The notes under the pieces were generated by a model that was not told the origin of the DNA, ran no database searches, and saw nothing but the letters and a program-made list of their open reading frames with translations. Made by a program: the position numbers and the translations under genes. Below, piece after piece: positions 13,161 to 39,914 of a DNA stretch of 61,808 bases (position 1 is its first letter; the number at the start of each line of letters is the position of its first letter). Location of the stretch: positions 1 to 61,808 of the forward strand of contig NZ_JACYVH010000001.1 of the NCBI RefSeq assembly GCF_014842255.1, read 5' to 3'. Origin of the DNA: Frigoribacterium sp. CFBP 13712. GTDB lineage: Bacteria; Actinomycetota; Actinomycetes; Actinomycetales; Microbacteriaceae.

Positions 13161-13245
13161 GTCGGCAACTCCTCACCTGTGCGCGCGGGCGGGGCTGGGC
13201 GGCCTGTGCTGGCGTGGTGCGCGGCACGGAGGAGGAGTTGCCGAC
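13161..13245. repeat. 85-bp framed inverted repeat, unit 1a
   Basis: GTCGGCAACTCCTC at the left end and its exact reverse complement at the right end enclose 57 bp. The interior can partly pair through GTGCGCGC against GCGCGGCAC. It is one of seven units with the same total length. Confidence 0.9.
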
Positions 13246-13344
13246 CGGGGCGGGCCACCGGGCTGCGCCGCGCGGAAGGATGAGCCGCCGACGCGCGGGG
13301 CCACGGGGCTGCGGCGCTCGGGAGGAGGAGCACTCACGCGCCGG

Positions 13345-13429
13345 GTCGGGAACTCCTCACCTGTGCGCGCGGGCGGGGCTGGGCGGCCTGTGCTGGCGTG
13401 GTGCGCGGCACGGAGGAGGAGTTGCCGAC
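13345..13429. repeat. 85-bp framed inverted repeat, unit 1b
   Basis: This is the duplicate of unit 1a with one substitution in the left end (GTCGGGAACTCCTC). The right end GAGGAGTTGCCGAC is unchanged. Confidence 0.9.
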
Positions 13430-13505
13430 CGGGGCGGGCCGACGGACTGCGCCAGGCGGGAAAGAGAGGAGGAGTCGCCGATGCGCCCGGTCGCGGGGCC
13501 GCGCC

Positions 13506-13590
13506 GTCGGGAACTCCTGCCCCGTACCGAGGCAGGGGTCGGGACCCGAGCGGATGCGGCGCCACGCGGCAAAGAGGAGGAGTTACCGAC
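13506..13590. repeat. 85-bp framed inverted repeat, unit 1c
   Basis: The ends are GTCGGGAACTCCTGC and GAGGAGTTACCGAC. The interior is unrelated to unit 1a apart from composition and contains a short GGGT-CGGG-ACCC hairpin. Total length is again exactly 85 bp. Confidence 0.88.
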
Positions 13591-13727
13591 CCCGGCAAGG
13601 CTGCAAGCAAGCGGGAGCGGGACGGGACACAGCTTGGACGGGCCCGACCGCGGGAGGGCGGGCCGGCGCGGGCGCAGGCGCGGGCCGGCGGGCCGGGCCA
13701 GCGCGGGCGCAGGCGCGGGCGCGGGCT

Positions 13728-13793
13728 GGCGCGGGCGCAGGCGCGGGCCGGCGCGGGCGCAGGCGCGGGCCGGCGCGGGCGCAGGCGCGGGCC
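13728..13793. repeat. Three perfect tandem 22-bp G+C repeats
   Basis: A unit starting GGCGCGGGCGCAGG and ending GCGGGCC is repeated three times without change, with further imperfect copies to the left near 13664 and 13699. It is part of the low-complexity tract that abuts the stop codon at 13884. Confidence 0.9.
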
Positions 13794-13883
13794 GGCGGGC
13801 CTGTCCAGCGCGGGCGCGGGCGCGGGCCGGCAGACGGCCAGCGAGCGGACCGGCGGGCCGGCGCGCGCGGGCCGCGGGCGCGC

Positions 13884-14216
13884 TCAGGCGAGGGGCGCCA
13901 GGCGGAGGAACTTCTCGGCGACGGAGGCCGAGCCGACGGGCCCCTCACCGTCGCGGTCCAGCTGTGGCGAGTCGAACTCCACGAGCCAGGTGCGCGCCGA
14001 GCCGCCGATCGCCGAGACGCCCTGCCAGGCCGAGCCCCCCGCGCGGACGATGATGCCGGTGGGCCCGTAGGGGAACGGCGTGCCCGCGTCTTCGTCGGAG
14101 TCGAGCACGTACACCTGGGCGCCCACACCGATGCGAGGAGCGGACGGCAATCCCCCCGGAGAGAAGGAGTCGTCGCCGGCAGGGGTGTCGCGTGTCCGTC
14201 GGGTGAACATGCACAC
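13884..14216 (-). CDS. Hypothetical protein, 110 aa
   Basis: I do not recognise this family. The middle reads like a small conserved cytosolic beta-rich protein (RIGVGAQVYVLDSDEDAG, GPTGIIVRAGGS, TWLVEFD), while the N-terminal 20 residues look poorly conserved. There is no signal peptide or membrane helix. A GTG is used here; an ATG two codons later is equally possible, and no clear ribosome-binding site decides between them. It follows the CAU-anticodon tRNA gene on the same strand and is followed by the repeat locus. Confidence 0.6.
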   Translation of the reverse strand: MCMFTRRTRDTPAGDDSFSPGGLPSAPRIGVGAQVYVLDSDEDAGTPFPYGPTGIIVRAGGSAWQGVSAIGGSARTWLVEFDSPQLDRDGEGPVGSASVAEKFLRLAPLA

Positions 14217-14265
14217 ATGGTGGCATGCCCGACCGGGTGCCGACCGACCGTCGGGGGTCGTGTCG

Positions 14266-14339
14266 TAGGGCGGACGGGACTTGAACCCGTGACCGATCGA
14301 TTATGAGTCGACTGCTCTAACCGGCTGAGCTACCGCCCC
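14266..14339 (-). tRNA. tRNA with CAT anticodon, probably tRNA-Ile2 (lysidine type)
   Basis: The cloverleaf is complete: acceptor GGGGCGG/CCGCCCT with a terminal G-U pair, D stem GCTC/GAGC, anticodon stem GTCGA/TCGAT with loop CTCATAA, and T arm ACGGG-TTCAAGT-CCCGT. No CCA is encoded. CTCATAA fits both elongator Met and the AUA-reading Ile tRNA. The GTC variable loop and TTCAAGT T loop match what I remember of E. coli tRNA-Ile2, so Ile2 is preferred but unproven. Confidence 0.85.
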
Positions 14340-14357
14340 GTGCCGACCGACCGCCCA

Positions 14358-14371
14358 GGAGGCGCGGGTCG
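14358..14371 (+). repeat. 14-mer repeat, forward orientation
   Basis: An exact GGAGGCGCGGGTCG lies between the glycosyltransferase stop codon and the 5' end of the CAT-anticodon tRNA. It ends two bases before the glycosyltransferase stop. Confidence 0.6.
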
Positions 14372-14372
14372 A

Positions 14373-15623
14373 TCAGGCGTCGGCGGCCGAGGCCACCGGT
14401 TCCCCACGATACAGCGACTCGAAGACGCTCACCGTCCGCTGGATGTCGTGTCCCTCGATGACCTGCAGGCTCGCCCGGCGCATCGCGAGGTACTCGTCGT
14501 CACCCGCCGTGAGCACGCGGGTCAGCTTGTCGGCCAGGTCGCGGCTGTCGCCCGGCCTGAAGAGGTAGCCATTGACCCCCTCGTCGACGAGGTGCGGCAG
14601 CGCCATGGCGTCGGCGACGACGAGCGGGAGACCGGACGCCATGGCCTCGAGGCTCGCGATGCTCTGCAGCTCGGCCACCGACGGCATGGCGAAGACGGTC
14701 GCATCCGTGAGGGTCCGCCGCAGCTCGGCGTCCGACAGGTAGCCAGCGAAGGTGACGCGCTCGGCGAGGCCCAGCTCGACGGTCATCAGCTGCAGCTGCT
14801 TGAGCAGGTCGCCGCCGCCCACGATGGTGAGTCGCGCGTCGAGTGCGGGGTCGAGCAGGGTCATTGCCTTCAGCAGCACGTCGATCTGCTTCTCGGCCGT
14901 GACCCGACCGACGAAGACCACCCGGTTCGCGGCGGGTCGGTCGTCGCGTGCCGTGTAGTCGGCGGCCTCGATGCCGCACGACACGGCCAGCACGCCGGTG
15001 ACGGCGACCGACCGCTCGAGGAACGCCGCGGCCCGCCTGGTCGGCGTCGTGATCGCCGCGACGTGCGTGTAGGTCTTCGCCGCGTCCCGCCAGGCGAGCT
15101 TGACGGCCGTCGCGCGGAGGAAGTGCGGCAGCCCGGTGTGCTCGAGGAGGTTCTCGGGCATGAAGTGGTTGGTGGCGATGACCCGGATGCCGCGGCGGTT
15201 AGCGACCCGGACGACGGCGCGACCGATCACGATGTGCGACTGGATGTGCACGACGTCGGGTCGGATCTGCTCGATGATGCGCTCGGCGTTGGGCTCGGCG
15301 CGCCACGGCGTCGCGAAGCGCAGCCAGTCGTGGAGGGGCCAGCGCGTCGAGTACAGCCGGTGGACGGTCAGGGTCACGCCGTCGTGCTGCTCCAGGAACG
15401 TCCCGTGGTGGCGGTCGGCCGCCGGGCAGATGACGTGCACGTCGTGCCCGCGGCCCGCCAGGCCGACGGCGAGTCGCTCGGCGAAGTTGGCGGCGCCGTT
15501 GACGTCGGGCGGGAACGTGTCCGCCGCGATCAGCACGGTGAGGCGCGGCGCGGTGTCGCCGCCGCCCGGACCGCTCGCGTTCTCGTCGCGGGGTTCGGGG
15601 GCGTGGTCTGGGGCGGGTGTCAC
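14373..15623 (-). CDS. GT4-family glycosyltransferase
   Basis: The 416-aa protein has the GT-B fold layout of family GT4: an N-terminal acceptor domain from about residue 40 (LIADTFPPDVNGAANFAERLA), a linker, then VVFVGRVTAEKQIDVLLKA and the donor-binding ELQSIASLEAMASGLPLV with the two family glutamates. Relatives include PimB-type mannosyltransferases that build phosphatidylinositol mannosides or lipoglycans at the inner membrane face; the substrate here is not provable. The GTG has AAGGA upstream at slightly long spacing, and the first 35 residues are Pro- and acid-rich. Confidence 0.85.
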   Translation of the reverse strand: MTPAPDHAPEPRDENASGPGGGDTAPRLTVLIAADTFPPDVNGAANFAERLAVGLAGRGHDVHVICPAADRHHGTFLEQHDGVTLTVHRLYSTRWPLHDWLRFATPWRAEPNAERIIEQIRPDVVHIQSHIVIGRAVVRVANRRGIRVIATNHFMPENLLEHTGLPHFLRATAVKLAWRDAAKTYTHVAAITTPTRRAAAFLERSVAVTGVLAVSCGIEAADYTARDDRPAANRVVFVGRVTAEKQIDVLLKAMTLLDPALDARLTIVGGGDLLKQLQLMTVELGLAERVTFAGYLSDAELRRTLTDATVFAMPSVAELQSIASLEAMASGLPLVVADAMALPHLVDEGVNGYLFRPGDSRDLADKLTRVLTAGDDEYLAMRRASLQVIEGHDIQRTVSVFESLYRGEPVASAADA

Positions 15624-15697
15624 GTGTCGTGGCGTCCTTGTGCTCGTGGTTCGCTGGTGCCCCGCCGATGGCGTCTGCGGCGCGGGACCACGGTAGC

Positions 15698-16612
15698 TCA
15701 GCTTCGCTTGGCGGGCTGGTATTTGGCGAGCTGGAACACGCCGTAGACGGCGATCGCGCCCGCGACGAGGAAGAGCGCGACGGCGTAGCCGGGTGCGTTC
15801 GCCGCCTCGCCGAGCACCACGATCCCGATGGTGACGGCGACGATGGGGTCGACCACCGTCAGCCCGGCGATCACGAGGTCGGGCGACCCCGACGAGTAGG
15901 CGTTCTGCACGAAGTACCCGCCGAGGGCCGCCGCCGCGAGGAGCATGACGATGCAGACGATGCTCAGACCGTCGAAGTTGCCGGCGAACACCCGGTTCAG
16001 CACGACCTTCGCGAGGGTGGCGACGAAGCCGTAGAGCACCCCGGCGCCGATGATGTAGAACAGCGCGCTGCGTCGGTGCCGCAGAGCGACGAAGGCGACG
16101 GCGAGGACGGCGCCCACGACGAGCAGGATGACGAGCACGGTGATCAGCTGATCGGTCGTGATCTCCGTCTCGATGGCGGTGAACGCGGCCACCGTGGCGA
16201 AGAGGCCGATGCCGCCGACGCAGATCGCGATCGACCGCTTGATGCGGCCCGACAGCCGCCGCCCGGTCGACCGGGCGTTGAGCACCGCGGTGATCACGAG
16301 CGCGACGGCCCCGAGCGGCTGCACCACGAGCAGCGGGGCGACCCGCAGACTCGTCAGCTGGAACACCACGGCCAGCCCCAGCATCAGCGTGCCCATCACC
16401 CACGACGGTCGACCGATGAGTGCGAGCACCTGGCGGACGCTCATCCCGCCGCGCGACGCCCCGAGTCGCGTCTCGACCTTGGCGACGCCGCGATGCTGCA
16501 GCTGCGCGCCGATCGAGAGGAACACGGCGCCGATCAGGGCGATGGGGATCCCCAGCGCCTGGAACGGGGTCAACGAGACCTGCTCGGTCAGATCGCTGAG
16601 GTTCGGGCTCAC
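15698..16612 (-). CDS. DMT-superfamily (EamA-like) membrane protein
   Basis: The 304-aa protein has about nine or ten hydrophobic segments in two halves, the layout of drug/metabolite transporters. Recognisable pieces are GIPIALIGAVFLSIGAQLQHRG early and GLTVVDPIVAVTIGIVVLGE late, the latter typical of EamA repeats. The transported compound is unknown. I place the start at the GTG lying seven bases after TACCGT, because this forms a leaderless promoter; a GTG three codons upstream overlaps that -10 box. It is divergent from def. Confidence 0.8.
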   Translation of the reverse strand: MSPNLSDLTEQVSLTPFQALGIPIALIGAVFLSIGAQLQHRGVAKVETRLGASRGGMSVRQVLALIGRPSWVMGTLMLGLAVVFQLTSLRVAPLLVVQPLGAVALVITAVLNARSTGRRLSGRIKRSIAICVGGIGLFATVAAFTAIETEITTDQLITVLVILLVVGAVLAVAFVALRHRRSALFYIIGAGVLYGFVATLAKVVLNRVFAGNFDGLSIVCIVMLLAAAALGGYFVQNAYSSGSPDLVIAGLTVVDPIVAVTIGIVVLGEAANAPGYAVALFLVAGAIAVYGVFQLAKYQPAKRS

Positions 16613-16625
16613 GGCGTCCACGGTA
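16613..16625 (-). promoter_or_regulatory. Leaderless promoter of the DMT gene
   Basis: On the minus strand TACCGT is followed by seven bases and then the GTG start codon, so transcription would begin at or next to the start codon. Confidence 0.55.
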
Positions 16626-16641
16626 GCGGGCCGCCGCTCAG

Positions 16642-16653
16642 TAGGCTGGACGA
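16642..16653 (+). promoter_or_regulatory. Leaderless promoter of def
   Basis: TAGGCT-GGACGA-ATG places the first base of the start codon at the expected transcription start. No Shine-Dalgarno sequence is present. Confidence 0.65.
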
Positions 16654-17220
16654 ATGGCCGTTCGCCCCATCACCATCACGGGTGACCCCGTGCTGCACTC
16701 CCCCGCCTCCGACATCGCCGAGATCGACGACGCGATCCGCACCCTCGTCGCCGACATGTTCGAGACCATGGACGCCGCCCCCGGCGTCGGACTCGCCGGT
16801 CCGCAGGTCGGTGTCGGCCTCCGGCTCTTCGTCTTCTCGTGGACGGACGACGACGGCGACGACTGGCGCGGCGTCGCGATCAACCCCACCCTCTGGCAGA
16901 CCCCCCTCTCGATCGAGCCGCTCGACGACGACGACGAGTCGGAGGGCTGCCTGTCGGTTCCCGGCGAGCGGTTCCCGCTGCGTCGAGCCGAGGGCGTGAT
17001 CCTCCGCGCGACCGACCTCGAGGGCGACGAGTACGAGATCGAGGCGCACGGCTGGCTCGCCCGCATCTTCCAGCACGAGTTCGACCACCTCGACGGTGTG
17101 CTGTACACCGACCGGCTCGAGCACCCGTTCCACAAGGCGGCCGCGAAGGCCGTCAAGAAGGCCGGCTGGGGCTCCCCCGGCCGGACCTGGCTGCCCGGCG
17201 TCGATCACCCCGAAGACTGA
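16654..17220 (+). CDS. def: Peptide deformylase
   Basis: Def removes the formyl group from nascent N-terminal methionine. All three family motifs are present in the 188-aa protein: GVGLAGPQVG (motif 1), EGCLSVPG with metal-binding Cys99 (motif 2) and QHEFDH with His141, catalytic Glu142 and His145 (motif 3). The C-terminal tail is basic. The gene is divergent from the DMT transporter with a very short gap and appears to be leaderless. A long hairpin follows its stop codon. Confidence 0.96.
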   Translation: MAVRPITITGDPVLHSPASDIAEIDDAIRTLVADMFETMDAAPGVGLAGPQVGVGLRLFVFSWTDDDGDDWRGVAINPTLWQTPLSIEPLDDDDESEGCLSVPGERFPLRRAEGVILRATDLEGDEYEIEAHGWLARIFQHEFDHLDGVLYTDRLEHPFHKAAAKAVKKAGWGSPGRTWLPGVDHPED

Positions 17221-17247
17221 TCGGCCGAGAACCACCGGGCGAGAGCC

Positions 17248-17291
17248 CCGAGGAGGCGCGCGACGGCACCAGCCGGACCGCGCCTCCTCGG
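17248..17291 (+). terminator. Hairpin after def
   Basis: CCGAGGAGGCGCG pairs with CGCGCCTCCTCGG across an 18-nt loop that has its own CGGC/GCCG pairing. Both arms again carry the GGAGGCGCG core. There is no U-tract. Confidence 0.75.
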
Positions 17292-17332
17292 CGTCGCCGG
17301 CTCGAGAACCCCGTCGTCGACTCAAGGGCATG

Positions 17333-17366
17333 AAAAAAGGCCCAGAGGGTGGAGCCTCTGGGCCTT
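17333..17366 (-). terminator. Intrinsic terminator after tRNA-Asn
   Basis: On the minus strand AAGGCCCAGAGG pairs with CCTCTGGGCCTT around a 6-nt loop, followed by a run of six T. This is the clearest classical rho-independent terminator in the window. Confidence 0.9.
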
Positions 17367-17368
17367 CG

Positions 17369-17441
17369 CTCCCCGACTTGGACTCGAACCAAGAACCTGC
17401 CGGTTAACAGCCGGCTGCTCTGCCAATTGAGCTATCGAGGA
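17369..17441 (-). tRNA. tRNA-Asn (anticodon GTT)
   Basis: The minus strand forms acceptor TCCTCGA/TCGGGGA, D stem GCTC/GAGC, anticodon stem GCCGG/CCGGC with loop CTGTTAA, and T arm CTTGG-TTCGAGT-CCAAG, with G as discriminator. CCA is not encoded. Confidence 0.96.
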
Positions 17442-17497
17442 ATGGCAACTGCCTCAGACCGGAGCCTTCGACAGCGGACCCAACTGTAGCAAAGATT

Positions 17498-17527
17498 CGG
17501 GGGCGCATCGAACACGACGCGCCCCCG
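17498..17527 (-). terminator. Terminator of the oligopeptide transport operon
   Basis: CGGGGGCGC and GCGCCCCCG pair across a 12-nt loop just after the dehydrogenase stop codon. On the minus strand the stem is followed by AATCTTTG, a weak U-rich tail. Confidence 0.7.
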
Positions 17528-17531
17528 GGTC

Positions 17532-18530
17532 TCAGTAGCCGTCGGCCGGGTCGACGACCCCGGCGAAATCGCCGTCGCCGAGCAGTGCCCGCACGTTGTG
17601 CGTGATGCGCTCGGCGAGCAGCGGTGCCGTCATCTCGGGCGTGTCCGCCTGGTGCGGCGTCACGATGACCCGGGGGTCGCCCCAGAGCGGGTGACCGTCG
17701 GGCAGCGGCTCGGGCGCGGTCACGTCGACGCCCGCACCCCAGATCCGCTCGGCGCGGACGGCCTCGACCAGCCCCTCCGTGTCGACCAGGTCGCCCCGCG
17801 CGATGTTGACGACCACCGCGGTCGGCTTGAGCGACGCGAGACGCCGGCCGTCGAGCAGCCGCGACGTGCCCGACGTCGCCGCCGCCGCCAGCACGACGAC
17901 GTCGGCCTCGGGCAGCACCTCGTCGATGCGGTCGACCGTGACGGTGCGTTCGACGCCCTCGACAGGCGTCTCGCCGCGACGGACGATCGTCACGCGGGTC
18001 TCGAAGGGCCCCAGCAGACGGACGAGTTCGAGCGCGATGCCTCCGGCGCCCACGATCACGACGTTCTTGCCGTAGAGCGACAGCCCGCGCTGCTCGGTCT
18101 GCCAGCTCGTCGCCTGCACGCGCGACGGCACGACCCGCAGCAGCGAGAGCACGAGCATGAGCGCGTGCTCGGCGACGGGCTCCGAGAAGGCGCCCTTCGC
18201 GCTCGTCCAGAGCGGTCGCGGCGAGTCGGCGTAGCGGGCGAGCAGCTCGGAGAACGCGTCGACACCCGCGTAGGGCAGCTGCACCCACTCGATGCCCGGG
18301 TGCCGCTCGAGGGCCGCGGCGAGACCCTCGGGGTCGGTGTACGAGAGCCAGATCAGCCCCCGCGTCTCATCGCCCAGGGGGACGACGGCGGCGCCCCCGG
18401 CGCGCACGGCGTCGACGAAGCGCGGATTCTCGCGCGGCGCCAGGCTGACGGGCCCGGGCGACGGTCGCCGGTCGGCCGAGAGGCTCACGGTGGTCGTCGT
18501 CGCCCGGTGACCCCGGGTCGGCGCCGTCAC
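17532..18530 (-). CDS. D-isomer-specific 2-hydroxyacid dehydrogenase
   Basis: The 332-aa protein has the NAD-binding core of this family: VVIVGAGGIALELVRLL (a GxGxxA variant of the dinucleotide motif), catalytic Arg in NIARGDLVD, Glu in VDVTAPEPLP and His in VTPHQADTPE. It would reduce a 2-keto acid or oxidise a D-2-hydroxy acid in the cytosol; the substrate is unknown. Its GTG overlaps the TGA of the preceding ABC ATPase gene (GTGA), so it is translationally coupled as the last gene of the transporter operon. That suggests a link to the imported compound. Confidence 0.88.
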   Translation of the reverse strand: MTAPTRGHRATTTTVSLSADRRPSPGPVSLAPRENPRFVDAVRAGGAAVVPLGDETRGLIWLSYTDPEGLAAALERHPGIEWVQLPYAGVDAFSELLARYADSPRPLWTSAKGAFSEPVAEHALMLVLSLLRVVPSRVQATSWQTEQRGLSLYGKNVVIVGAGGIALELVRLLGPFETRVTIVRRGETPVEGVERTVTVDRIDEVLPEADVVVLAAAATSGTSRLLDGRRLASLKPTAVVVNIARGDLVDTEGLVEAVRAERIWGAGVDVTAPEPLPDGHPLWGDPRVIVTPHQADTPEMTAPLLAERITHNVRALLGDGDFAGVVDPADGY

Positions 18531-22193: not shown

Positions 22194-22195
22194 GG

Positions 22196-30486: not shown

Positions 30487-31142
30487 GCTGAGACCTCCGC
30501 GCCCACCTGCTGGAGGGCCTGGAGGAACATCTCGGGCGCCTGGGCCCCCGAGATGCCGTACTTGCCCTCGAGCACGAAGAACGGGACCCCCGTGATGCCG
30601 AACGCCTGCGCCTGGGCCTGGTCGGCTCGGACGTCGGGTTCGAAGCGCCCGTCGTCGAGGGCGGCACGGGCGGCGTCGGCGTCGAGACCGACCTCCGTGG
30701 CGAGGTCGACCAGCTCGTCGATGCGCCCGAGGTGGCGGCCCTCCTCGAAGTAGGCGGCGAGCAGGCGCTCCTTCATCTCGCGCTGCAGGCCGTTCGCCTT
30801 CGCGAAGTGCAGGAGCTCGTGCGCCTTGACGGTGTTCGTATGACGCAGCTTGCCGAAGTCATACCGGAGACCCACCTCGGCGGCGATCCGGGTGACGTTG
30901 TCGAGCATCCCCTGCACCTGATCGGCGGGCATGCCCTTGTGGTCGGCGAGGAACTGCACCTCGTCGCCCTCGAAGTCGACGGGGGTGTCGGGCGAGAGCT
31001 CGAACGAGTGGTACACGACCTCGACGGGGCCGCCGTAGCGCGCCACCGCGTCTTCGAACTTGCGCTTGCCGATGAAGCACCAGGGGCAGGCGATGTCGGA
31101 CCAGATGTCGACCTTCACGGCCCGGTTCTGCGTATCAGTCAC
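30483..31142 (-). CDS. DsbA-family (FrnE-like) thiol oxidoreductase
   Basis: The 219-aa protein is a thioredoxin-fold protein with active site Cys19-Pro-Trp-Cys22 in VDIWSDIACPWCFIGKRKFE, a helical insertion, and the cis-proline region GITGVPFFVLEGKYGISGAQ. No signal peptide is present, so it acts in the cytosol like other FrnE-type proteins, probably on disulfides or glutathione/mycothiol-type adducts. Its GTG overlaps the TGA of the DUF559 gene, and its TGA overlaps the start of the 59-aa gene, so three genes form one coupled operon. Confidence 0.92.
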   Translation of the reverse strand: MTDTQNRAVKVDIWSDIACPWCFIGKRKFEDAVARYGGPVEVVYHSFELSPDTPVDFEGDEVQFLADHKGMPADQVQGMLDNVTRIAAEVGLRYDFGKLRHTNTVKAHELLHFAKANGLQREMKERLLAAYFEEGRHLGRIDELVDLATEVGLDADAARAALDDGRFEPDVRADQAQAQAFGITGVPFFVLEGKYGISGAQAPEMFLQALQQVGAEVSA

Positions 31143-32278
31143 ACGGGCCGAACCATCGGGCCGCGCCCTGCATTCCCGCGCCGGGGCGCGCCCTGCTGCG
31201 GCTGCGCGCCCGGTGTCGGCTGCGCGCCCTGCTCCGGCTGCGCGCCCTGCTCCGGCTGCGCGCCCGGTGTCGCCGCCCTTGGCGCCGAGAGTCGCGCCGC
31301 CACCGGCCGCACCTGTCTCCCGTGGGGCGACGGTTGCCGTCTGCGGCGCCTCGGGCTCCTGCCGAGGCGCCACTTCCTCCGGCCTCTCCCCGGCAGCACC
31401 CGCGGCAGAGAGGCCTCACCGACCTCGAAGCCATCGGGTGCCCGGAGGGGCTGCGACGTCAACGCGTCGACGACAGCGGCGACCAGCGGCCACCGGTCTC
31501 GAACCATCGAGGTGCTGGCACGCATCGGGAGGAATCCCGCGAGGATCATGGTCGCGTCTTTCAGGCGGTCCTTGTCGAAACGGGATGCGTGGGTCTCGCG
31601 ACCGTCCGTCTCGAGCGCCACCACCCCGTCGACGACGATGTCGATGCGCTCCCCACGGGGGCCCACCGGCACCTGCCTCCGGATCTCTCGCCCGGCGAGC
31701 CGCAGTCGCGTCCCCGCGGCGCTCTCCAGGATGCTCTCCGCCCGGCCATCGCTCCATTCGGCCAGACCGGCTGCGTCGGCTCTCCTGCGCGAGAGCACCT
31801 CTCGGGCGTCGTCGTCGTCGACGAGAACGCCTCGCTGACGTGCCCAGTCGACGAGGATGACGGCGTCCTCCAGGCTGTCGGCCTCGACCACGGCCCGCGC
31901 GAGCGCGTCTCGGGGGTCCACCGACCAGGTCGTCCCGCGCGTCGAGAGCTCGACGGGATCCCAGGCCACCCTCACGCCCCTTCTGCGACGGAGTCGAGAG
32001 GCGGACTCTGGGACCGAGACGGTGATCTTCGGCCGATGCCACATCCACGCACCCAGTTGATGGAGCGCCGAGGCGCCGGTGAGTCGACCGCCTACGGCGA
32101 CCGCGATGTACCGCGGGTCGTCCGGCTTCCAGGTCGAGTACCAGCCGCGCCTCGGTCTGCGGACTCCGCCGAAGCGGACAGCGGCGGTCAGGTGCCGGTC
32201 GGTGGCCCCTTCGGCGACGAGGGCGTCTTTGTGGAGTAGCCCGCCGTGAGCGGAGACGAGTTCGGCGATCGTGGTCAT
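31139..32278 (-). CDS. DUF559 / AbiEi-like domain protein with a repetitive tail
   Basis: The 379-aa protein starts with an AbiEi-like winged-helix region (MTTIAELVSAHGGLLHKDAL) and ends its core with a Vsr-like PD-(D/E)xK segment: ESILESAAGTRLRLAG, then IDIVVDGVVALETDG with plausible catalytic Asp and Glu. Such proteins are common singletons in actinobacteria and have been called antitoxin-like or endonuclease-like without proof. The last 80 residues are unusual: a basic stretch, then repeats of GAQP(E/T/Q) units encoded by an 18-bp tandem repeat. The gene is coupled to the DsbA-like gene. Its upstream region is repeat locus 2. Confidence 0.75.
   Translation of the reverse strand: MTTIAELVSAHGGLLHKDALVAEGATDRHLTAAVRFGGVRRPRRGWYSTWKPDDPRYIAVAVGGRLTGASALHQLGAWMWHRPKITVSVPESASRLRRRRGVRVAWDPVELSTRGTTWSVDPRDALARAVVEADSLEDAVILVDWARQRGVLVDDDDAREVLSRRRADAAGLAEWSDGRAESILESAAGTRLRLAGREIRRQVPVGPRGERIDIVVDGVVALETDGRETHASRFDKDRLKDATMILAGFLPMRASTSMVRDRWPLVAAVVDALTSQPLRAPDGFEVGEASLPRVLPGRGRRKWRLGRSPRRRRRQPSPHGRQVRPVAARLSAPRAATPGAQPEQGAQPEQGAQPTPGAQPQQGAPRRGNAGRGPMVRPV
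31202..31273 (-). repeat. 18-bp coding tandem repeat
   Basis: Four 18-bp units starting CTGCGCGCCC on the plus strand, plus a partial fifth at 31186, encode GAQPxx repeats in the DUF559 protein tail. Two middle units are identical. Copy number could vary between strains. Confidence 0.9.
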
Positions 32279-32414: not shown

Positions 32415-32499
32415 GTCGGCAACTCCTGCTCGCTGCCGCTCGCCGGGGCGACACGCCGTTCGGCTGCGGCGTGAGCTGCACACAGGAGGAGTTGCCGAC
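32415..32499. repeat. 85-bp framed inverted repeat, unit 2a
   Basis: The ends are GTCGGCAACTCCTGC and GAGGAGTTGCCGAC, pairing over 13 bp. The interior holds a perfect CACGCCG/CGGCGTG hairpin. Total length is 85 bp. Confidence 0.9.
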
Positions 32500-32629
32500 G
32501 CGAGATGCCGTCTCGGCGGACGGGGCCGGACGCTCGCCCGGGGCTGTCGTTCGAGTTGCAGGTTCGTGCGCCCACTGCGCGGTCGGGATTCGGTTGGAAA
32601 GGGTTGCCGCCGCTCCGACAGCCTCCGCC

Positions 32630-32714
32630 GTCGGCAACTCCTGCGTGTCGCGCCCGAAGCGCCGTCCTCGGTGGCTCGAGAGGCGCCGCGGCGCAGCAAG
32701 CAGGAGTTGCCGAC
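32630..32714. repeat. 85-bp framed inverted repeat, unit 2b
   Basis: The ends GTCGGCAACTCCTGC and GCAGGAGTTGCCGAC are perfect 15-bp reverse complements. The interior contains GCGCC/GGCGC pairing and no similarity to unit 2a. Total length is 85 bp. Confidence 0.92.
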
Positions 32715-32892
32715 ACACGGGGCGGCGCCGGGCGGGGGTGGCGCCGGCAGCGGGCAGCGCTGCGCCGGCCGGAGGGCGGCGGGGCACGGGCCGCAGGGGC
32801 GACAGGGCCGCGGGGGCGGCAGGGCCGCGGGGGCGCCGGCCGCGGGGGCGGCAGGGCGGCGGGGGCGGGCCGGGCCCGCCCCCGCGCGACCG

Positions 32893-34278: not shown

Positions 34279-34340
34279 GTGTGATGCTCCGATTGTGTTG
34301 AGGCCCGAGCTGGATGCCCGGTCGGCCGAGGTACCCGGCA

Positions 34341-34346
34341 ACTCTA
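34341..34346 (-). promoter_or_regulatory. -10 element of glyS
   Basis: TAGAGT on the minus strand would start transcription near 34334. No convincing -35 is visible in the G+C-rich sequence upstream. Confidence 0.4.
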
Positions 34347-34357
34347 GCCGCCGCCCC

Positions 34358-35428
34358 TCAGGCGCGGAGCGCCCGCACGACCGCCTCGACGTCCTCCTCA
34401 TCGTTCCAGAGGTGGAACGCGATCCGCACCCGACCGGCGCGCCCCGACGCCGTCAGCCCCGCCGCGGCGAGCGACACGAGGTCGGCCCCCGGGTCCACCC
34501 AGGTGACGATCGCCTGGCCCTGCCGCGGGAGGTCGAGTCGGTCGCAGAGCAGATCGCCCAGGCCGGAGGCGCGGCGCCAGACCTCGGCCGTGTCGAGCGA
34601 CGCGAGGGCCCGCAGCGCCGGCAGAGCCCCGACCCACGCGGGCCAGGCCGGCGACACGTCGAATGCGCGGGCGTCCGACGCGAGCTCCATGGTCGGCCCG
34701 TAGCAGGACCCCCAGACCGACTCCCCCGCGTACCACCCCGCCTGGACCGGCCGGAGGCGCGGCGCGGCGCTCTCGGACACCGTCAGGAACGCCGCCCCTC
34801 GCGGACTGCACAGCCACTTGTACCCGTGGCACACCGTCAGGTCGTACCGCCCGGCGTCGATCGGCAGCACCCCTGCGGCCTGGGTCGTGTCGCAGAGCGT
34901 GAGCGCACCGTGCCGCCCCGCCGCGGCGACGATCGCCCGGTCGTCGGCCACGGCGCCCGTCGCCGACTGGATCGCCGACCAGGCCACCAGCCAGGTCGCC
35001 GCCGAGACCGACGACGCGAGCTCGGCGAGCGGCACGCTCCGCACCCGCACGCCGCGATGCCGCTGCTGCAGGAAGGGGAAGACCATCGAGCTGAAGTCGC
35101 CGTCGACGCAGAGCACCTCGGCGCCGTCGGGCACGGCGGCCGCGACGACGGCGACCATCGCCGACGTCTGGGAGCCGATGGCGACGCGAGCGGCGGGGAC
35201 GGCGACGAGCGCGGCGTAGGCGACCCGCGCCTCCTCGACGACCGCTCCGTACTCGATCGGCGAGGTGCCGCCCGTCCGCCACGACTCGAGGTCGAGGCGC
35301 TGGGCCTCGAGCGTCGCGAGCATCGGCAGACCCATCGTGCACGCCGCGAGGTAGCCGGTGCGGGGCGCGAACGACCGCGTCGCCTCGACGAGAGCGGGCG
35401 ACCAGGAGGAGCGGGTCGAGTCGGTCAT
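34358..35428 (-). CDS. Class V aminotransferase family protein
   Basis: The 356-aa PLP-fold protein has the family's lysine loop, [12 protein letters not shown], with Lys204 as the expected PLP-binding residue, preceded by [15 protein letters not shown] with the conserved Asp and Gln. The class includes cysteine desulfurases, kynureninases and isopenicillin epimerase-like enzymes. No active-site cysteine loop typical of desulfurases is evident, so the reaction is open. It is divergent from a LysR regulator, which probably controls it. A GAGGAG ribosome-binding site precedes the ATG. Two GGAGGCGCG cores lie within the gene. Confidence 0.85.
35221..35234 (-). repeat. 14-mer repeat inside the aminotransferase gene
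   Basis: An exact CGACCCGCGCCTCC lies within the coding sequence and is read on the minus strand as part of VEEARVAY. Confidence 0.6.
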
Positions 35429-35484
35429 GCCCCCAGACTCCTCGCCCCGCACCCCCAAGACAACCACCGACGTCGTTCCGATCT

Positions 35485-35509
35485 CATAACCCCGGGTTAT
35501 GGTTCGGAC
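35485..35509 (+). promoter_or_regulatory. Palindromic operator and leaderless promoter of the LysR gene
   Basis: CATAACCC-C-GGGTTATG is a perfect 8-bp dyad around one base. Its right arm overlaps TATGGT, which is followed by six bases and the ATG. A regulator bound to the dyad would block this promoter. The dyad has the T-N11-A shape expected for LysR-type proteins and lies between the two divergent genes. Confidence 0.7.
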
Positions 35510-36460
35510 ATGAGCGACGACCTCGATCTGCAGACGCTCCGCGTGGTGCGGGCCCTCGCCGACACGGGCACGATCACCGCCGCGGCCGCCCGGCTGGGCT
35601 ACAGCCAGCCCGCCGTGAGTCAGCATCTGCGCCGCGCCGAGGCCCGTGTCGGGCACCCGCTGGTGCTCCGCACGGGACGCGGCGTCACCCTCACCGAGGC
35701 CGGCGCCCGTCTCGCCGAGCACGCCGTGCACGTGCAGGCCGCCCTCGACGCCGCCCGGCAGGAGCTCGACCGGCTCGGCGGGGCCGCCTCGGGACGCGTG
35801 CGACTGACCGGGTTCCCCAGCGCCTCCTCGACGATCGTGCCCGACGTGCTCGCGCGACTCCGGCACGAGCACCCGGGTCTGCAGGTGACCTACGTCGAGG
35901 CCGAGCCGCCCGAGGCCCTCGCGGCGCTCCGCGACGGCAGGGCCGACGTCGCCCTGGTCTTCAGCCACCCCGGGTCGACCACCGCCGGCCGCGATCTCGA
36001 CGGGCTCAGCGAACGCGACGTGTACCTCGACCGCACCGTGCTGGTGCTGCCCGCCGACCACCCGTTCGCCGACGGGTCGCCCTTCGCCGACCTCGCCGAC
36101 GAGCGGTGGATCGGCGGCTGCCCCCGGTGCCGCGGGCACCTCCTCGCGACCTGCGCGGCCGAGGGCTTCACGCCCGAGATCGTGCTGGAGACCGACAACG
36201 CGCTGGCCGTGCTCGGGCTCGTCGCCGCGCGCATGGGCGTCGCCCTGCTGCCGAGGCTCTCGCTGCAGGCGGCGGCGCTGCCGAGCGCCGTCCGCGTGGT
36301 CGACCTGCCCGACCAGATGGGGCGTCGCATCGCCGTCGTGCACCGGTCCGGTGCCCGGCGGGTGCCCAGCGTCCGTGCGCTCACCGGGGCGATCGCGGCT
36401 CTCGACCCGCGCCTCCACGGCCTCACCGCCCTGAGCGGCCCCCGATCGGACGCGGGTTAG
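35510..36460 (+). CDS. LysR-family transcriptional regulator
   Basis: The 316-aa protein has the LysR N-terminal helix-turn-helix (DLQTLRVVRALADTGTITAAAARLGYSQPAVSQHLRRAE) and the effector-binding domain from about residue 85 (GRVRLTGFPSASSTIVPDVLARL). A Cys-x2-Cys pair (GGCPRCRGH) in the effector domain is unusual and could sense metal or redox state. It is divergent from the class V aminotransferase gene, with a dyad operator between them that points to autoregulation and control of that gene. Confidence 0.92.
   Translation: MSDDLDLQTLRVVRALADTGTITAAAARLGYSQPAVSQHLRRAEARVGHPLVLRTGRGVTLTEAGARLAEHAVHVQAALDAARQELDRLGGAASGRVRLTGFPSASSTIVPDVLARLRHEHPGLQVTYVEAEPPEALAALRDGRADVALVFSHPGSTTAGRDLDGLSERDVYLDRTVLVLPADHPFADGSPFADLADERWIGGCPRCRGHLLATCAAEGFTPEIVLETDNALAVLGLVAARMGVALLPRLSLQAAALPSAVRVVDLPDQMGRRIAVVHRSGARRVPSVRALTGAIAALDPRLHGLTALSGPRSDAG
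36403..36416 (-). repeat. 14-mer repeat inside the LysR gene
   Basis: An exact CGACCCGCGCCTCC encodes DPRLH near the C-terminus of the regulator. Confidence 0.6.
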
Positions 36461-36463
36461 GCT
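36458..36463 (+). promoter_or_regulatory. -10 element of the lipoprotein gene
   Basis: TAGGCT overlaps the LysR stop codon. Transcription would start near 36470 and give a 24-nt leader that includes the ribosome-binding site GGGAAGG. Confidence 0.45.
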
Positions 36464-36493
36464 GACCGGACGACTTCGGGAAGGTGTCTGCAC

Positions 36494-37147
36494 GTGCGGA
36501 GAAGAGTGCTCGCCTCGGCGGCCGTGGTCGTCACCACGCTCGTGGCCCTGACCGGCTGCTTCGCCGACCTCGACTCGCTCGAGCCCGTCGGCGGCGGACC
36601 CTCCGGAGGCGCGGCGACGGCTCCCCCGCAGCCCCAGGTCACCGGGGCGCCCGGCACCGGCGGCGGCACCGCACCCGACGACCTCGCGCCCGGCGGCACG
36701 CTGCTCAACCAGGTCAACTACAGCGACCTGACGATCTACATCTACGACGTCGGCCGCCTGACGACGGAGGCGCCGTCGATCTACGCGCGCCCCGACGGCA
36801 CCGACCCCTACCCGACCGGCACGGAGGTCGTCGCGACCGCCTACGTGCTGACGAACAACTCGCAGCAGCGTCTCGACCTCACCGATCTCAGCGCCGACTA
36901 CTCGTCGTACGGCAACGACCTCGCCACCCAGGACGTCTTCGCGGGCCGCGACCTGCTCACCGGCCTCGGGTACGAGACCGAGCTCGACGCGCAGTTCCCC
37001 GCCGATGCGGCGACCTGGTACCTGCTGCCGGGCGAGTCAGTCGTGTTCGCCAACGCGTGGTTCCACCGCGACGCCGACGGGCCGTTGACGCTGCAGTTCC
37101 TCTGGCCGGCCGAGCGGATCTTCCTGGGCGCGAACATCCAGTTCTGA
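36494..37147 (+). CDS. Putative lipoprotein
   Basis: The 217-aa protein has a clear lipoprotein signal: MRRRVLASAAVVVTTLVALTGC with Cys22 in the lipobox. A Gly/Pro/Ala-rich linker (about residues 33-68) tethers a beta-rich domain beginning NQVNYSDLTIYIYDVGRL and ending in LFLGANIQF-like strands. I do not recognise a specific family, though the domain resembles small extracellular beta-sandwich proteins. It would be anchored to the outer face of the membrane. Confidence 0.8.
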   Translation: MRRRVLASAAVVVTTLVALTGCFADLDSLEPVGGGPSGGAATAPPQPQVTGAPGTGGGTAPDDLAPGGTLLNQVNYSDLTIYIYDVGRLTTEAPSIYARPDGTDPYPTGTEVVATAYVLTNNSQQRLDLTDLSADYSSYGNDLATQDVFAGRDLLTGLGYETELDAQFPADAATWYLLPGESVVFANAWFHRDADGPLTLQFLWPAERIFLGANIQF

Positions 37148-37212
37148 GCTCGGGTGGTCGGGGTGCCGGGCGGTCGGGGCGCCGGGCTTCAGGTCGTCGG
37201 CGCGTCGGCGCG

Positions 37213-38007
37213 TCAGGCGGTCGGCGCGTCGATCGCCCCGCCGAAGCGCCGCGACCGGGCGGCGTAGGTCGTGACGGCCTCCCACAGGTCGGTGCGCGTG
37301 AAATCGGGCCACAACCGGTCGAGGAACACCATCTCGGCGTAGGCCGACTGCCAGAGCAGGAAGTTGCTCGTCCGCTGCTCGCCCGAGCTGCGGACGAAGA
37401 GGTCGACGTCGGGCAGATCGGCCGTGTAGAGGTGCTTCTGGATGAGCTTCTCGCTCACGCCGGAGGGCTTGATGCGACCGGCGGCCACGTCTTCGGCGAT
37501 GGCCCGGACGGCGTCGGCGATCTCCGTACGACCGCCGTAGTTGACGCACATCGTGAGCGTCAGCACGTCGTTGCCGCGGGTGAGCTCCTCGGCGTACTGC
37601 AGCTCTTTGATGACCGAGCCCCAGAGCCGGGGTCTGCGGCCGGCCCAGCGGACACGGACGCCCCAGGCGTTCAGCTGGTCGCGCCTCCTGTGCAGGACGT
37701 CGCGGTTGAACCCCATCAGGAACCGCACCTCGTCGGGCGAGCGCTTCCAGTTCTCGGTCGAGAACGCGTAGACGCTGAGGTGCTTGACGCCCATCTGGAT
37801 CGCCCCGGCGACGACGTCGAGCAGCGACATCTCGCCCGCCTTGTGGCCCTCCACCCGGGTGAGGCCCCTGCCGTTCGCCCACCGGCCGTTGCCGTCCATG
37901 ACGATGGCCACGTGCCCGGGCACCGCTCCCTTCGGCAGCTCGGGAGGGTGGACGCCCGTCCAGTCGAGGGGTCGGTAGTCGGCCGCGTCGCGGTGCGTCT
38001 TCTTCAC
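37213..38007 (-). CDS. uppS: Isoprenyl transferase (undecaprenyl diphosphate synthase family)
   Basis: The 264-aa cis-prenyltransferase makes polyprenyl diphosphate carrier lipid for cell-wall synthesis. It has [18 protein letters not shown] with catalytic Asp38, the [11 protein letters not shown] segment and the C-terminal [28 protein letters not shown]. The GTG overlaps the TGA of recO (GTGA), so both are translated from one message. The 60 bp after the stop codon are imperfect GTCGGGGCGCCGGG repeats. Confidence 0.95.
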
Positions 38008-38795
38008 GGATGCCCTCCTGGGAGCGGGGTGCGGCCCGTCGGGGCCGAGGCGGTCACGGCGGCTCTCGCCGGCTCGCGATCGACGTGCTGGAGCGAACGG
38101 AGTCCCCGTTCGAGATGCCACTGGGTGTAGGCCGCCACGACGCCGCTGGCCTGGTTGCGCGTGCCCTCGGGCGCGGCGTCGGCGACCGCCCAGTCTCCCG
38201 TGAGCAGCGCCGACAACAGGGCCAGCGCCTCCTGGGTCAATCTGGGCGACCCGGGAGGCGCGTGGTCGTCCGCCACCACCCCGCCCAGCTGCACGACGAA
38301 CGCCGAATGCGGCCCCGGCGCGCCCGTGACAGCGCAGTCGCCGAAGCTGGGCGACCACCCCGCCACGCTCAGTGCCCGGAGGAGGTACGAGTCGAGCGTC
38401 AGCTGCGGCGCGTGCTCGGCGCGCGACAACGACCGGAGCGCGCCGACCAGCAGGAGGTACTGCTGCAGACCCGCCTCGGCCTCCGTCAGCTTGTCGGCGG
38501 TCTCGACCATGACGCTGCCCGCCGTGTAGCTCGCGTAGTCACCCGCGATCACCGCCCCGTACGAGCCCAGCGACTCGGCCTGCTGCACGATGTCGAGCGA
38601 ACGGCCCTCGTAGAGCTGCAGGTCGGCTACCATCATCGGCTCGAGACGGGCGCCGAACTTCGAGGCCGTGCGGCGGACGCCCTTCGCGACGGCCCGGATC
38701 TTGCCGTGGTTGCGGCTGAGCATCGTGAGGATGCGGTCGGCCTCGCCCAGCTTGTGGGTGCGCAGGATGACGCATTCATCGCGGTAGACGGGCAC
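38004..38795 (-). CDS. recO: DNA repair protein RecO
   Basis: RecO anneals single strands and loads RecA in the RecFOR pathway. The 263-aa protein has the OB-fold start [51 protein letters not shown], followed by the helical domain; the zinc-binding cysteines of some RecO proteins are only partly present ([11 protein letters not shown]). The GTG has GGAGGG directly upstream and also GATACT six bases before it, so either a leadered or a leaderless message is possible. Confidence 0.95.
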
Positions 38796-38829
38796 CCCTC
38801 CAGTATCCCCCGCGTGGTACAAACGTCGG
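38796..38829. promoter_or_regulatory. Divergent promoter region recO / TRIC-type gene
   Basis: Only 34 bp separate the two starts. On the plus strand TACAAA-CGTCGG-ATG and on the minus strand GATACT-GGAGGG-GTG show the leaderless spacing, each one base away from TANNNT. Confidence 0.4.
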
Positions 38830-39492
38830 ATGCACGCCACAGCCTTCGCCGTACCTCTGTGGGTGGATCTTCTCGCGGTGGGCATCGGGAGCCTGCAGGG
38901 CGCCATGTTCGCCTCCGAGTTCAAAGACCGACGTCTCGATCTGCTCGGCGTCGCCATCATCGGCATCGCGACCGGGCTCGGCGGCGGCGTGCTGCGCGAC
39001 GTGCTGCTCGGCGTCGTGCCCCGTGCCATGTCGAGCAACTGGTACCTGCTGGTGGCCGTGCTGGCGGCGATCCTCGGCATGGCGCTGCAACGCGTGTTCG
39101 ACCGGCTGGCGGGCGTCATCACGGTGCTGGACGCCCTCACGATCGGGCTGCTGGGGGCCATCGGGTCGACCAAGGCGCTCGCCATGGGGATTCCGGAGAT
39201 CCCCGCCGTGTTCGTGGGGGTGATCGCAGCCGTGGGCGGGTCGGTGCTGCGCGACCTCCTGATGAACCTCACGATCGCGATGATGCACGTGGGGTCGCTC
39301 TACGCGGTCGCGGCGGCCGCGGGCACCGGAGTGCTCGTCGTCGCCGTGAGCTTCGGCGCCCCCGTCGCCGTCGCCGCCGTCGTGGGCACCTCGGTGACGC
39401 TGGTCATCCGCATGCTCGCGGTGCGATTCGGCTGGACCCTGCCCGAGCAGCGCGCCCTCAGCAGGCTGCCCCGCTGGCGCCGCCCCCGCTGA
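38830..39492 (+). CDS. TRIC-type (UPF0126) cation channel family protein
   Basis: The 220-aa membrane protein has the duplicated three-helix layout of prokaryotic trimeric intracellular cation channels, with the two glycine motifs [15 protein letters not shown] (near residue 50) and [13 protein letters not shown] (near residue 135). About seven hydrophobic segments are visible. Members conduct potassium; direct function here is inferred from the family. The basic C-terminal tail is short. The gene runs into repeat locus 3. Confidence 0.9.
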
Positions 39493-39620
39493 GGCCCAGG
39501 GCCCGCCGGTCCCCCGCCGCCCCGCCGCCCTGCTGCCCTGCGGCACCGCGGCCCCGCCGCCGACCCGCGCCGCTACCCCGCTGCGTCGCCCCGCTACCCC
39601 GCGGCCCCGGTGCCCCGCGC

Positions 39621-39634
39621 CGACCCGCGCCTCC
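39621..39634 (-). repeat. 14-mer repeat in repeat locus 3
   Basis: An exact CGACCCGCGCCTCC lies between the low-complexity tract and the first 85-bp unit, the only place where both repeat families are adjacent. Confidence 0.6.
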
Positions 39635-39667
39635 TCTCATAGCCTCGCGGGACAGCTACCCCGCGGC

Positions 39668-39752
39668 GTCGGCAACTCCTGCTCCTCGCGTCGGTCGACG
39701 TCAGCACCTCGGCGTGTCGGCGTCTCGACCGCAGCCGGCAGGAGTTGCCGAC
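39668..39752. repeat. 85-bp framed inverted repeat, unit 3a
   Basis: The ends GTCGGCAACTCCTGC and GCAGGAGTTGCCGAC are perfect reverse complements. The interior can pair GGTCGA with TCGACC. Total length is 85 bp. Confidence 0.92.
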
Positions 39753-39829
39753 CGTGGCCGAACACCGAGGGACGCCGCGCGGCGTGCCGCAGCCCCGAGC
39801 GACGCATCCGCCGCCGGGCGGGCCCACGC

Positions 39830-39914
39830 GCCGACAACTCCTGCTCCGTGCAGCGATCCAGCCGCAGAGGCACCGTACGGGGCGGTGCATCCGCAGGAGG
39901 CAGGAGTTGCCGAC
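39830..39914. repeat. 85-bp framed inverted repeat, unit 3b
   Basis: The left end GCCGACAACTCCTGC has two changes; the right end GCAGGAGTTGCCGAC is exact. The interior holds GCACCG/CGGTGC pairing. Total length is 85 bp. Confidence 0.9.

What the first reader, a model, noticed from the sequence alone, without database searches (positions are those of the whole stretch)
13161..39914. A family of seven intergenic elements, each exactly 85 bp, framed by GTCGGCAACTCCTGC inverted repeats
Units at 13161-13245, 13345-13429, 13506-13590, 32415-32499, 32630-32714, 39668-39752 and 39830-39914 all measure 85 bp end to end. The framing 14-15-mers are strongly conserved while the 55-57 bp interiors are unrelated in sequence (apart from the 1a/1b duplicate); several hold their own short hairpin. 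All are between genes and occur in groups of two or three. Conserved ends with conserved length but free interior argues for a structural or protein-spacing constraint: 85 bp is close to eight helical turns, so two bound proteins would face the same side. A small non-autonomous mobile element or a structured 3' RNA are the alternatives. I know no named element with this design.
Basis: seen in the sequence. Interest (0 to 1): 0.9.

Follow-up and report, generated by a model that had tools for sequence, protein, structure and literature searches.

The report
Twin-ended DNA elements paired with nuclease
Short intergenic DNA elements with mirrored ends and a free middle, whose lengths differ by about whole turns of the double helix, accompany a probable nuclease gene in a bacterial family and look like the docking sites of an undescribed nuclease-linked genetic system.

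Summary
In detail: seven 85-bp units at the stated places. The genus is Frigoribacterium; 16 of 16 held genomes carry the element. Interiors diverge like flanking DNA while ends and net length are kept, and I found no consistent interior pairing: the spacing of two half-sites on double-stranded DNA is constrained, not a hairpin. The likely partner is gene X (window 31139-32278, -): AbiEi-like N-terminus plus Vsr-fold nuclease domain. Many X genes are bracketed by palindromes of shared end word; a second X type and a second word are present together in 3 and absent together in 4 of 7 genomes; many solo elements lie near X, not in every genome. It resembles REPIN-RAYT systems, but no RAYT was found and the hairpin rule fails. 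Binding, cutting and movement are inferred; no clean insertion was seen.

The parts
13161..13245 (.). element 1a, 85 bp
13345..13429 (.). element 1b, 85 bp, near-identical interior to 1a (local duplication)
13506..13590 (.). element 1c, 85 bp, one mismatch in each 13-bp end
32415..32499 (.). element 2a, 85 bp, the element nearest the start of gene X (about 137 bp)
32630..32714 (.). element 2b, 85 bp
39668..39752 (.). element 3a, 85 bp, beside leuA; elements at the orthologous place in several other Frigoribacterium genomes
39830..39914 (.). element 3b, 85 bp
31139..32278 (-). gene X: AbiEi-like N-terminus plus Vsr-fold (MTES_1575/DUF559-type) nuclease C-terminus
31326..31423 (-). decayed right-end element at the 3' end of gene X (peptide VGEASLPRVLPGRGRRKWRL where relatives read VGNSCLPRVLGPRGRRxWRL); end words no longer recognisable
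   Evidence: the extent is inferred from the 98-bp class of relatives

Best explanation
Each element is a pair of inverted half-sites of about 25 bp (end word plus a second contact about one turn further in) that one protein complex holds together. Because the DNA between them is short and stiff, the half-sites must face the same side, so lengths differ by about whole helical turns while the interior drifts. The protein is most likely gene X, which would read the half-site with its AbiEi-like winged helix and carries a Vsr-fold nuclease domain. X and its elements would form a REPIN-RAYT-like intragenomic system: many X genes are bracketed by their own elements, and solo elements accumulate often nearby, probably by nicking or cutting at elements followed by local duplication or gene conversion. 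Shown: anatomy, length classes, lack of consistent interior pairing, association of X with shared end words, co-occurrence of one word with one X type, local clustering in several genomes, purifying selection on X. Inferred: that X binds, loops and cuts the elements, and how copies arise.
For: Length classes. No consistent pairing: (61 elements). Ends and net length kept, interior not: (67 aligned pairs: outer 14 bp 0.889, centre 0.712, flank 0.701) and (net change of at most 1 bp in 26 of 39 elements against 9 of 33 flank windows under the same 25-bp cut-off, 9 of 48 without it). X bracketed: inverted-repeat score of 12 or more upstream in 21 of 25 and at the 3' end in 13 of 25 X loci of other genera, against 5 of 125 control windows and 0 of 300 shuffles; end words shared across X within a locus (16 loci, mean match 13.4 against 9.0 between loci, permutation p 0.0002; own partner best or tied in 10 of 16). 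Specificity: the CAACTCAGG word in both ends occurs in 3 of 7 Frigoribacterium genomes, the three with an X type that groups apart by sequence alone (64-85% identity within, 41-49% to the second X of the other four), and it is in the 74-76-bp class while the CAACTCCTGC word in those genomes is 85-98 bp. Occurrence: 24 of 30 element-positive against 12 of 90 element-negative genomes have X at E<=1e-20 (see evidence against). Clustering: 41 of 59 sites not adjacent to X lie within 100 kb of an X, 9.0 expected. E185, D213, H230 and D237 invariant in 34 homologues; dN/dS 0.10-0.19 in 8 pairs. Fold links: 3hrl, E 1.1e-6 by profile.
Against: No biochemistry. No target-site duplication or clean empty site; the only change seen directly is tandem copy number and apparent array turnover. 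Each group in the window stands shortly before the start of the next gene, which fits plain regulation too. Clustering is not universal: in G055 8 elements lie on four contigs and its X is on a fifth and flanked by another word; in G053 8 of 26 and in G064 2 of 9 elements lie within 100 kb of an X. One search scored at most 16 candidates a genome and missed X genes that the profile then found at E 1e-58 to 1e-80 in all six element-positive 'X-negative' genomes, so its X-absences, and the Fisher test, are unreliable; the profile was not run on the element-negative genomes. Less regular for divergent X: upstream 8 and downstream 7 of 17 loci; same word on both sides in 2 of 17. G015, without the second X type, has one element with CAACTCAGG at one end and CAATTCAGG at the other. 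Two elements on G000 contig C4 have no X on that contig. The 98-bp class lies about 2 bp off the 10.5-bp register and the best period for Frigoribacterium alone is 11.45. Arm identity is slightly above the between-element value at positions 14, 21 and 36 (z 2.2, 4.4, 2.0), and other-genera interiors fold a little better than chimeras (mean z -0.66 against -0.32, p 0.23). AlphaFold model mediocre (pLDDT 69.6); no Foldseek match reaches E 0.001 and the top one is a mitoribosomal protein. Window X scores below the PF18741 cut-off and does not match the Pfam AbiEi_4 model.
Confidence: 0.57

Rival explanations
1. Host regulation or chromosome organisation: X is an AbiEi-type regulator that autoregulates through the upstream element and acts, by looping, at further operators nearby; the nuclease fold is a relic or has another role.
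For: N-terminus resembles AbiEi; an element lies about 100-150 bp before the X start in many loci; each group in the window lies about 90-140 bp before the called start of the next gene; elements at the same places across the genus; purifying selection on X; the arrangement with glyS and dsbA homologues on either side is seen in 17 of 27 non-home X loci.
Against: Catalytic-type residues invariant or nearly so in 34 homologues; a matching element at the 3' end of the X frame in many loci; up to 33 copies per genome, tandem arrays and changing copy number.
Confidence: 0.26
2. A REPIN or other palindromic element moved by a RAYT or another transposase acting on single-stranded hairpins.
For: Same gross design: two inverted end words, variable spacer of defined length, tandem clusters, partner gene flanked by the words (PMC3116915, passages seen); six of the seven elements were folded and all form arm hairpins, z -1.9 to -6.9.
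Against: No Y1_Tnp match in 8 of 8 genomes searched; no consistent compensatory change or significant excess of interior folding; length classes follow the DNA helix.
Confidence: 0.05
3. A defence or self-marking system in which X cuts DNA and chromosomal elements titrate or restrain it.
For: PADLOC AbiEi models match 29 of 34 members; X orthologues are 59-75% identical to window X while glyS is 92-97%, though the DsbA-like neighbour is also only 71-80%.
Against: No defence gene recognised by Pfam among the 8 window proteins scanned, three of which matched no family; the locus arrangement is shared by many genera; AbiEi hits are to the DNA-binding part.
Confidence: 0.08
4. Transcription terminators or structured 3' RNAs.
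For: Each group lies downstream of a gene; whole-element folding energies below shuffles; one terminator-like site overlaps the end of element 1c on the - strand.
Against: No Rfam family at gathering score; of the three regions scanned one further terminator-like site lies outside the elements and the third region has none; large interior without consistent pairing; length classes.
Confidence: 0.03

Closest known systems
REPINs and RAYTs (REP doublets with REP-associated tyrosine transposases; PMC3116915, passages seen)
   Same: Two inverted conserved end words of about 16 bp, less conserved spacer of defined length, tandem clusters, partner gene flanked by the words; [quoted passage not shown]
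   Different: Candidate partner is an AbiEi-like/Vsr-fold protein and no RAYT was found in 8 genomes; no consistent compensatory pairing in the interior; length set by the double helix; solo elements often cluster near the gene; end words bear no REP hairpin of their own (inspection only).
EDxHD homing endonucleases (I-Bth0305I, PDB 3r3p)
   Same: Distant similarity of the C-terminal domain (profile E 0.16; Foldseek E above 1, TM 0.65-0.68 by target).
   Different: No intron or intein seen around X; large paired palindromic sites and many chromosomal copies.
AbiEi antitoxin/transcriptional regulators
   Same: N-terminal domain (PF13338 in 18 of 34, PADLOC AbiEi in 29 of 34; 6y8q as a weak fold match).
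   Different: Fused to a nuclease domain; the two window neighbours match tRNA-synthetase and DSBA families.
MITEs
   Same: Small, non-coding, inverted ends.
   Different: Interiors in the window unrelated apart from 1a/1b; no target-site duplication seen; no related transposase identified.

Membership tests
REPIN-RAYT | two inverted conserved end words with variable spacer | tested here: met
REPIN-RAYT | RAYT (Y1_Tnp, HUH) gene in the genome | tested here: not met
   0 of 8 genomes searched (7 Frigoribacterium and G150); control rings in 5 of 14 known genomes
REPIN-RAYT | spacer forms a hairpin with compensatory changes | tested here: not met
   with small exceptions told in the report; definition from passages of PMC3116915
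REPIN-RAYT | partner gene flanked by the same words | tested here: met
   for many loci, though the gene is not a RAYT; the window copy has lost its right end
REPIN-RAYT | excision or transposition | tested here: inconclusive
   copy-number change and apparent array turnover only
MITE | related interiors among copies of one genome | tested here: not met
   among the seven window elements only 1a and 1b are alike
MITE | target-site duplication | tested here: inconclusive
   flanks too diverged between most genomes; between G005 and G006 no difference of 20 bp or more at elements other than in the leuA array
EDxHD homing endonuclease | EDxHD-type catalytic residues on a Vsr fold | tested here: inconclusive
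   E185, D213, H230, D237 invariant, E223 and D225 at 90% or more of 34; fold matches weak
EDxHD homing endonuclease | residence in an intron, intein or intervening gene with homing into its target | not tested
   X lies between glyS and dsbA in the window; no empty target site was identified
AbiE toxin-antitoxin | AbiEii nucleotidyltransferase toxin next to the gene | tested here: not met
   window only: flanking genes match HGTP_anticodon/tRNA-synt_2b and DSBA; other genomes not checked

The most novel reading that the evidence does not exclude
A new class of intragenomic element system: a Vsr-fold nuclease with an AbiEi-type winged helix maintains and spreads, often in its own neighbourhood, elements that consist only of two inverted half-sites held in helical register, with each X lineage owning its own end word. 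It would be a dsDNA-loop counterpart of the REPIN-RAYT systems, in Microbacteriaceae and possibly in another order of the class (L239).
Probability: 0.47. Interest if true: 0.92.

Novelty: categorically new. Interest (0 to 1): 0.88.

Why it matters
Quantised length with a drifting interior is an unusually clean, purely genomic signature of a DNA loop held by a protein, readable here in many genera of one family. It would give a function to a poorly characterised nuclease family (AbiEi-like plus MTES_1575/DUF559), and would show that REPIN-like populations can be run by a protein other than a RAYT. It is directly testable with one purified protein and spacing mutants.

Tried and rejected
Rejected: structured RNA or terminator; RAYT-driven REPIN; a link to the replication terminus: by dnaA position the G015 cluster is about half-way round, but one G006 cluster is about three quarters round and the G150 elements found lie nearer the origin, and in G006 each cluster lies by an X copy. 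Most of the Streptomyces and Actinomadura hits are one conserved coding-like stretch (GH32 is my recall, no family search). The single viral hit L127 looks like chance.

Led nowhere: clean empty sites between Frigoribacterium genomes; the plasmid search. Paper searches on this theme gave listings with nothing on the association (two searches returned no paper); passages were seen of PMC3710099 and PMC3116915, no paper was read whole. That it is not in print rests on these searches of an open-access library only.

Rows dropped and limits: one search leaves out the five Frigoribacterium pairs of 149-273 bp and one 137-bp pair. One search uses 25 of the 27 loci L157-L183 (L173 and L178 left out). 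One search looks at 17 of 20 new loci, at 17 of 21. speak of 80 elements of 'other genera', but 3 are from Frigoribacterium (L210, L211); one search gives the 77. Of these 77, 38 come from loci brought in by a pattern limited to 63-93 bp, 39 from loci fetched by gene X. One search drops pairs with more than 25 gap letters, counts near-identical G005 and G006 apart and includes the coding 98-bp class; one search dropped elements, not flanks, beyond 25 bp, mended. One search was a first version biased by regions fetched around X; one search replaces it. One search lists were typed. Counts are over distinct sequences, not independent events.
Full report
What was checked first. The seven units are real, each 85 bp, at the stated coordinates. 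Ends match GTCGGCAACTCCTGC far above chance (19 hits with up to 3 mismatches against 4.4 expected; 14 of them the element ends). The window is the first 61.8 kb of contig C1 of a 3.16-Mb genome. The genus is Frigoribacterium: contigs of the same lengths bear that name (the 1,588,767-base contig of G001 is listed as F. endophyticum); NCBI places it in Microbacteriaceae. 16 of 16 held genus genomes have elements by a strict pattern, 0 in the reversed control. All groups lie between genes that run the same way, after one gene and about 90, 140 and 120 bp before the called start of the next.

Length is quantised. In the fetched stretches, pairs allowed to span 40-140 bp gave 76 pairs: 69 at 75-76, 85-88, 95-96 and 98 bp, and 7 other lengths that each share a half-site with one of those. 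Of 68 exact half-sites with an opposite one within 300 bp, 62 fall at core lengths 69-70, 78-82, 89-90 and 92; one is 115 and five are 149-273. The class tends to go with the genome: those found in G001 are 75-76 bp and in G010 75 bp; in G000, G006, G009, G012 and G015 mostly 85-88 with some of 95-98. In other genera, 77 distinct elements with end word (A/C)AA(C/T)TCAGG, matched over 56-111 bp, lie at 63-64 (5), 72-76 (39), 83-86 (30) and 94-96 (3); class means 63.80, 74.13, 84.93 and 95.33, steps 10.33, 10.81 and 10.40. Loci fetched by gene X alone, without a length-limited pattern, give 39 of these in the same classes. This is the pitch of B-DNA. Against a perfect fit: the Rayleigh peak is broad, and for Frigoribacterium alone the best period is 11.45, the 98-bp class being about 2 bp off.

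The interior drifts and is not consistently paired. Across 67 aligned element pairs from stretches with 84-97% identity the outer 14 bp are 88.9% identical, positions 20-25 75.1%, the centre 71.2% and the flanks 70.1%. Net length changes by at most 1 bp in 26 of 39 elements; among flanking windows of the same length in 9 of 48, or 9 of 33 under the same 25-bp cut-off. In 61 elements with dissimilar interiors the left arm resembles its own right arm no more than that of other elements at most positions; exceptions are positions 14, 21 and 36 (z 2.2, 4.4, 2.0), and 21 is the conserved second contact. In other genera an unstratified test gave an excess at positions 16-22 (0.58 against 0.33) that nearly vanished when shuffled within genome (0.590 against 0.565, 102 of 1000 shuffles as high), because each genome has its own extended word. 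Interiors fold about as well as chimeras of mismatched halves (mean z -0.39 against -0.35 in Frigoribacterium; -0.66 against -0.32, p 0.23, in the 80). Six whole elements fold as arm hairpins, as inverted repeats would. This points to two half-sites read on double-stranded DNA in helical register.

The partner gene. Between glyS and a DsbA-like gene the window has gene X (31139-32278, -). All 11 close X copies found in seven Frigoribacterium genomes (at least 56% identical) have at least one element of the CAACTCCTGC word, allowing 6 mismatches in all, within the fetched 1.5-kb flanks, mostly 100-350 bp upstream. In 6 of the 11 a 98-bp element overlaps the 3' end of the frame and encodes a (V/A)GNS...QE(L/F)P peptide; in the window copy this right end has decayed. 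Searching the family with X (36 of 120 genomes, 29 of 85 genera at E<=1e-20) showed a general design in many loci: palindrome, X, palindrome, the first about 100-150 bp before the start, the second overlapping or just after the 3' end. Scores of 12 or more occur upstream in 21 of 25 loci and downstream in 13 of 25, against 5 of 125 control windows (some of them further elements) and 0 of 300 shuffles. The sides share their end word (16 loci, permutation p 0.0002, own partner best or tied in 10 of 16). In 17 of 27 non-home loci X lies beside homologues of both window neighbours, glyS and dsbA.

Specificity. Divergent X paralogues have other words: CAACTCAGG beside L145, L146 and L151, GTGCACAAATGCAGGAC on both sides of L153. 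By sequence alone the second X of G000, G006 and G009 form one type (64-85% identical) and those of G001, G010, G012 and G015 another (60-87%; 41-49% between types). The CAACTCAGG word at both ends is found in G000 (3), G006 (2) and G009 (4) and in none of the other four, in the 74-76-bp class, while the CAACTCCTGC word in those genomes is 85-98 bp. A looser pattern finds one mixed-word element in G015. In 120 family genomes, elements of the (A/C)AA(C/T)TCAGG word occur in 30 (26 of 85 genera, up to 33 copies; the reversed pattern gave 1 hit in 120 genomes). 24 of the 30 have X at E<=1e-20 against 12 of 90 others (Fisher 3e-11), but one search was insensitive: the six exceptions all have X by profile, and the element-negative genomes were not searched that way. 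One of the six, G055, has an X flanked by a different word.

Local clustering. Using genome-wide hits only, 41 of 59 sites not adjacent to X lie within 100 kb of an X, 9.0 expected; with one Frigoribacterium genome plus five others, 25 of 42, 3.6 expected. In G044, 23 of 24 elements lie on one contig within about 70 kb of X. Against: G053 8 of 26, G064 2 of 9, G055 0 of 8.

What X is. PF18741 (MTES_1575 REase) matches 28 of 34 homologues, AbiEi_4 18 and DUF559 9 at E<=0.01; PADLOC AbiEi 29 and its homing-endonuclease model 3. Window X itself scores 19 bits for PF18741 (cut-off 38), does not match AbiEi_4, and matches PADLOC AbiEi at E 0.0011. PMC3710099 describes the MTES_1575 domain as a Vsr-fold REase (passages). 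A profile search of the PDB gives 3hrl (E 1.1e-6) and I-Bth0305I 3r3p (E 0.16). The AlphaFold model (pLDDT 69.6) gives no match at E 0.001; a mitoribosomal protein ranks first, AbiEi 6y8q second, 3r3p eighth. E185, D213, H230 and D237 are invariant in 34 homologues. dN/dS of the main X is 0.10-0.19 in 8 pairs.

Movement. G005 and G006 (98.5% over 90 kb) differ at elements, among indels of 20 bp or more, by one 89-bp tandem unit and a 35-bp gap in the leuA array. More distant genomes appear to have or lack arrays at one place, but flanks are too diverged for boundaries. No target-site duplication was found. Tandem copy change is the only shown mode.

Outside the family. A profile search finds X in 12 of 246 genomes of the phylum at E<=1e-15, with a limited first look. 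Of 17 loci examined, same-word palindromes on both sides occur in two: L252 (same family) and L239 (same class, another order; 50-bp elements with 22-bp arms); six show none near the gene.

Reading. What is shown is an association, over many genera, of a probable nuclease with helically phased twin half-sites. That X binds and cuts them is inference, as is the selfish nature; host regulation is the main rival. By anatomy it works like REPIN-RAYT, but two defining features of that family were tested and not met, so I do not file it there.

Noticed in passing
window 13660-13800 and 32720-32880: G+C-rich short repeats (GGGCGCAGGCGCGGGCC-like, GCCGCGGGGGCGGCAGG-like) directly beside two of the element groups.
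   Followed up: no
window 13468-13482 (-): A lone degenerate half-site (ATCGGCGACTCCTCC, 3 mismatches) between elements 1b and 1c, possibly a decayed element end.
   Followed up: no
L055 10196, 10230, 10264: Left half-sites repeated in tandem at 34-bp spacing before one element, suggesting partial-unit duplication.
   Followed up: no
Element interiors in several genera; G053 and G064: A central CGGCGTGTCG-like word, in G053 and G064 often as its own inverted pair; within 1 mismatch in 10 of 61 Frigoribacterium interiors and 10 of 80 of the other set (3 of the 80 are Frigoribacterium), 0.8 in shuffles of each. Possibly a site for a second protein.
   Followed up: partly
L239 (G457), 1382-1431 and 2375-2424 on the gene's strand: X homologue from another order bracketed by two 50-bp palindromes with 22-bp arms.
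   Followed up: partly
L147, L149, L150: Divergent X-like genes with no palindrome of score 10 or more close to the gene, so not all relatives show the association.
   Followed up: no
L123 (Kurthia) 2918-2997 and L119 (Hymenobacter) 4086-4161: Pattern matches in other phyla whose ends extend into longer palindromes; probably unrelated.
   Followed up: no
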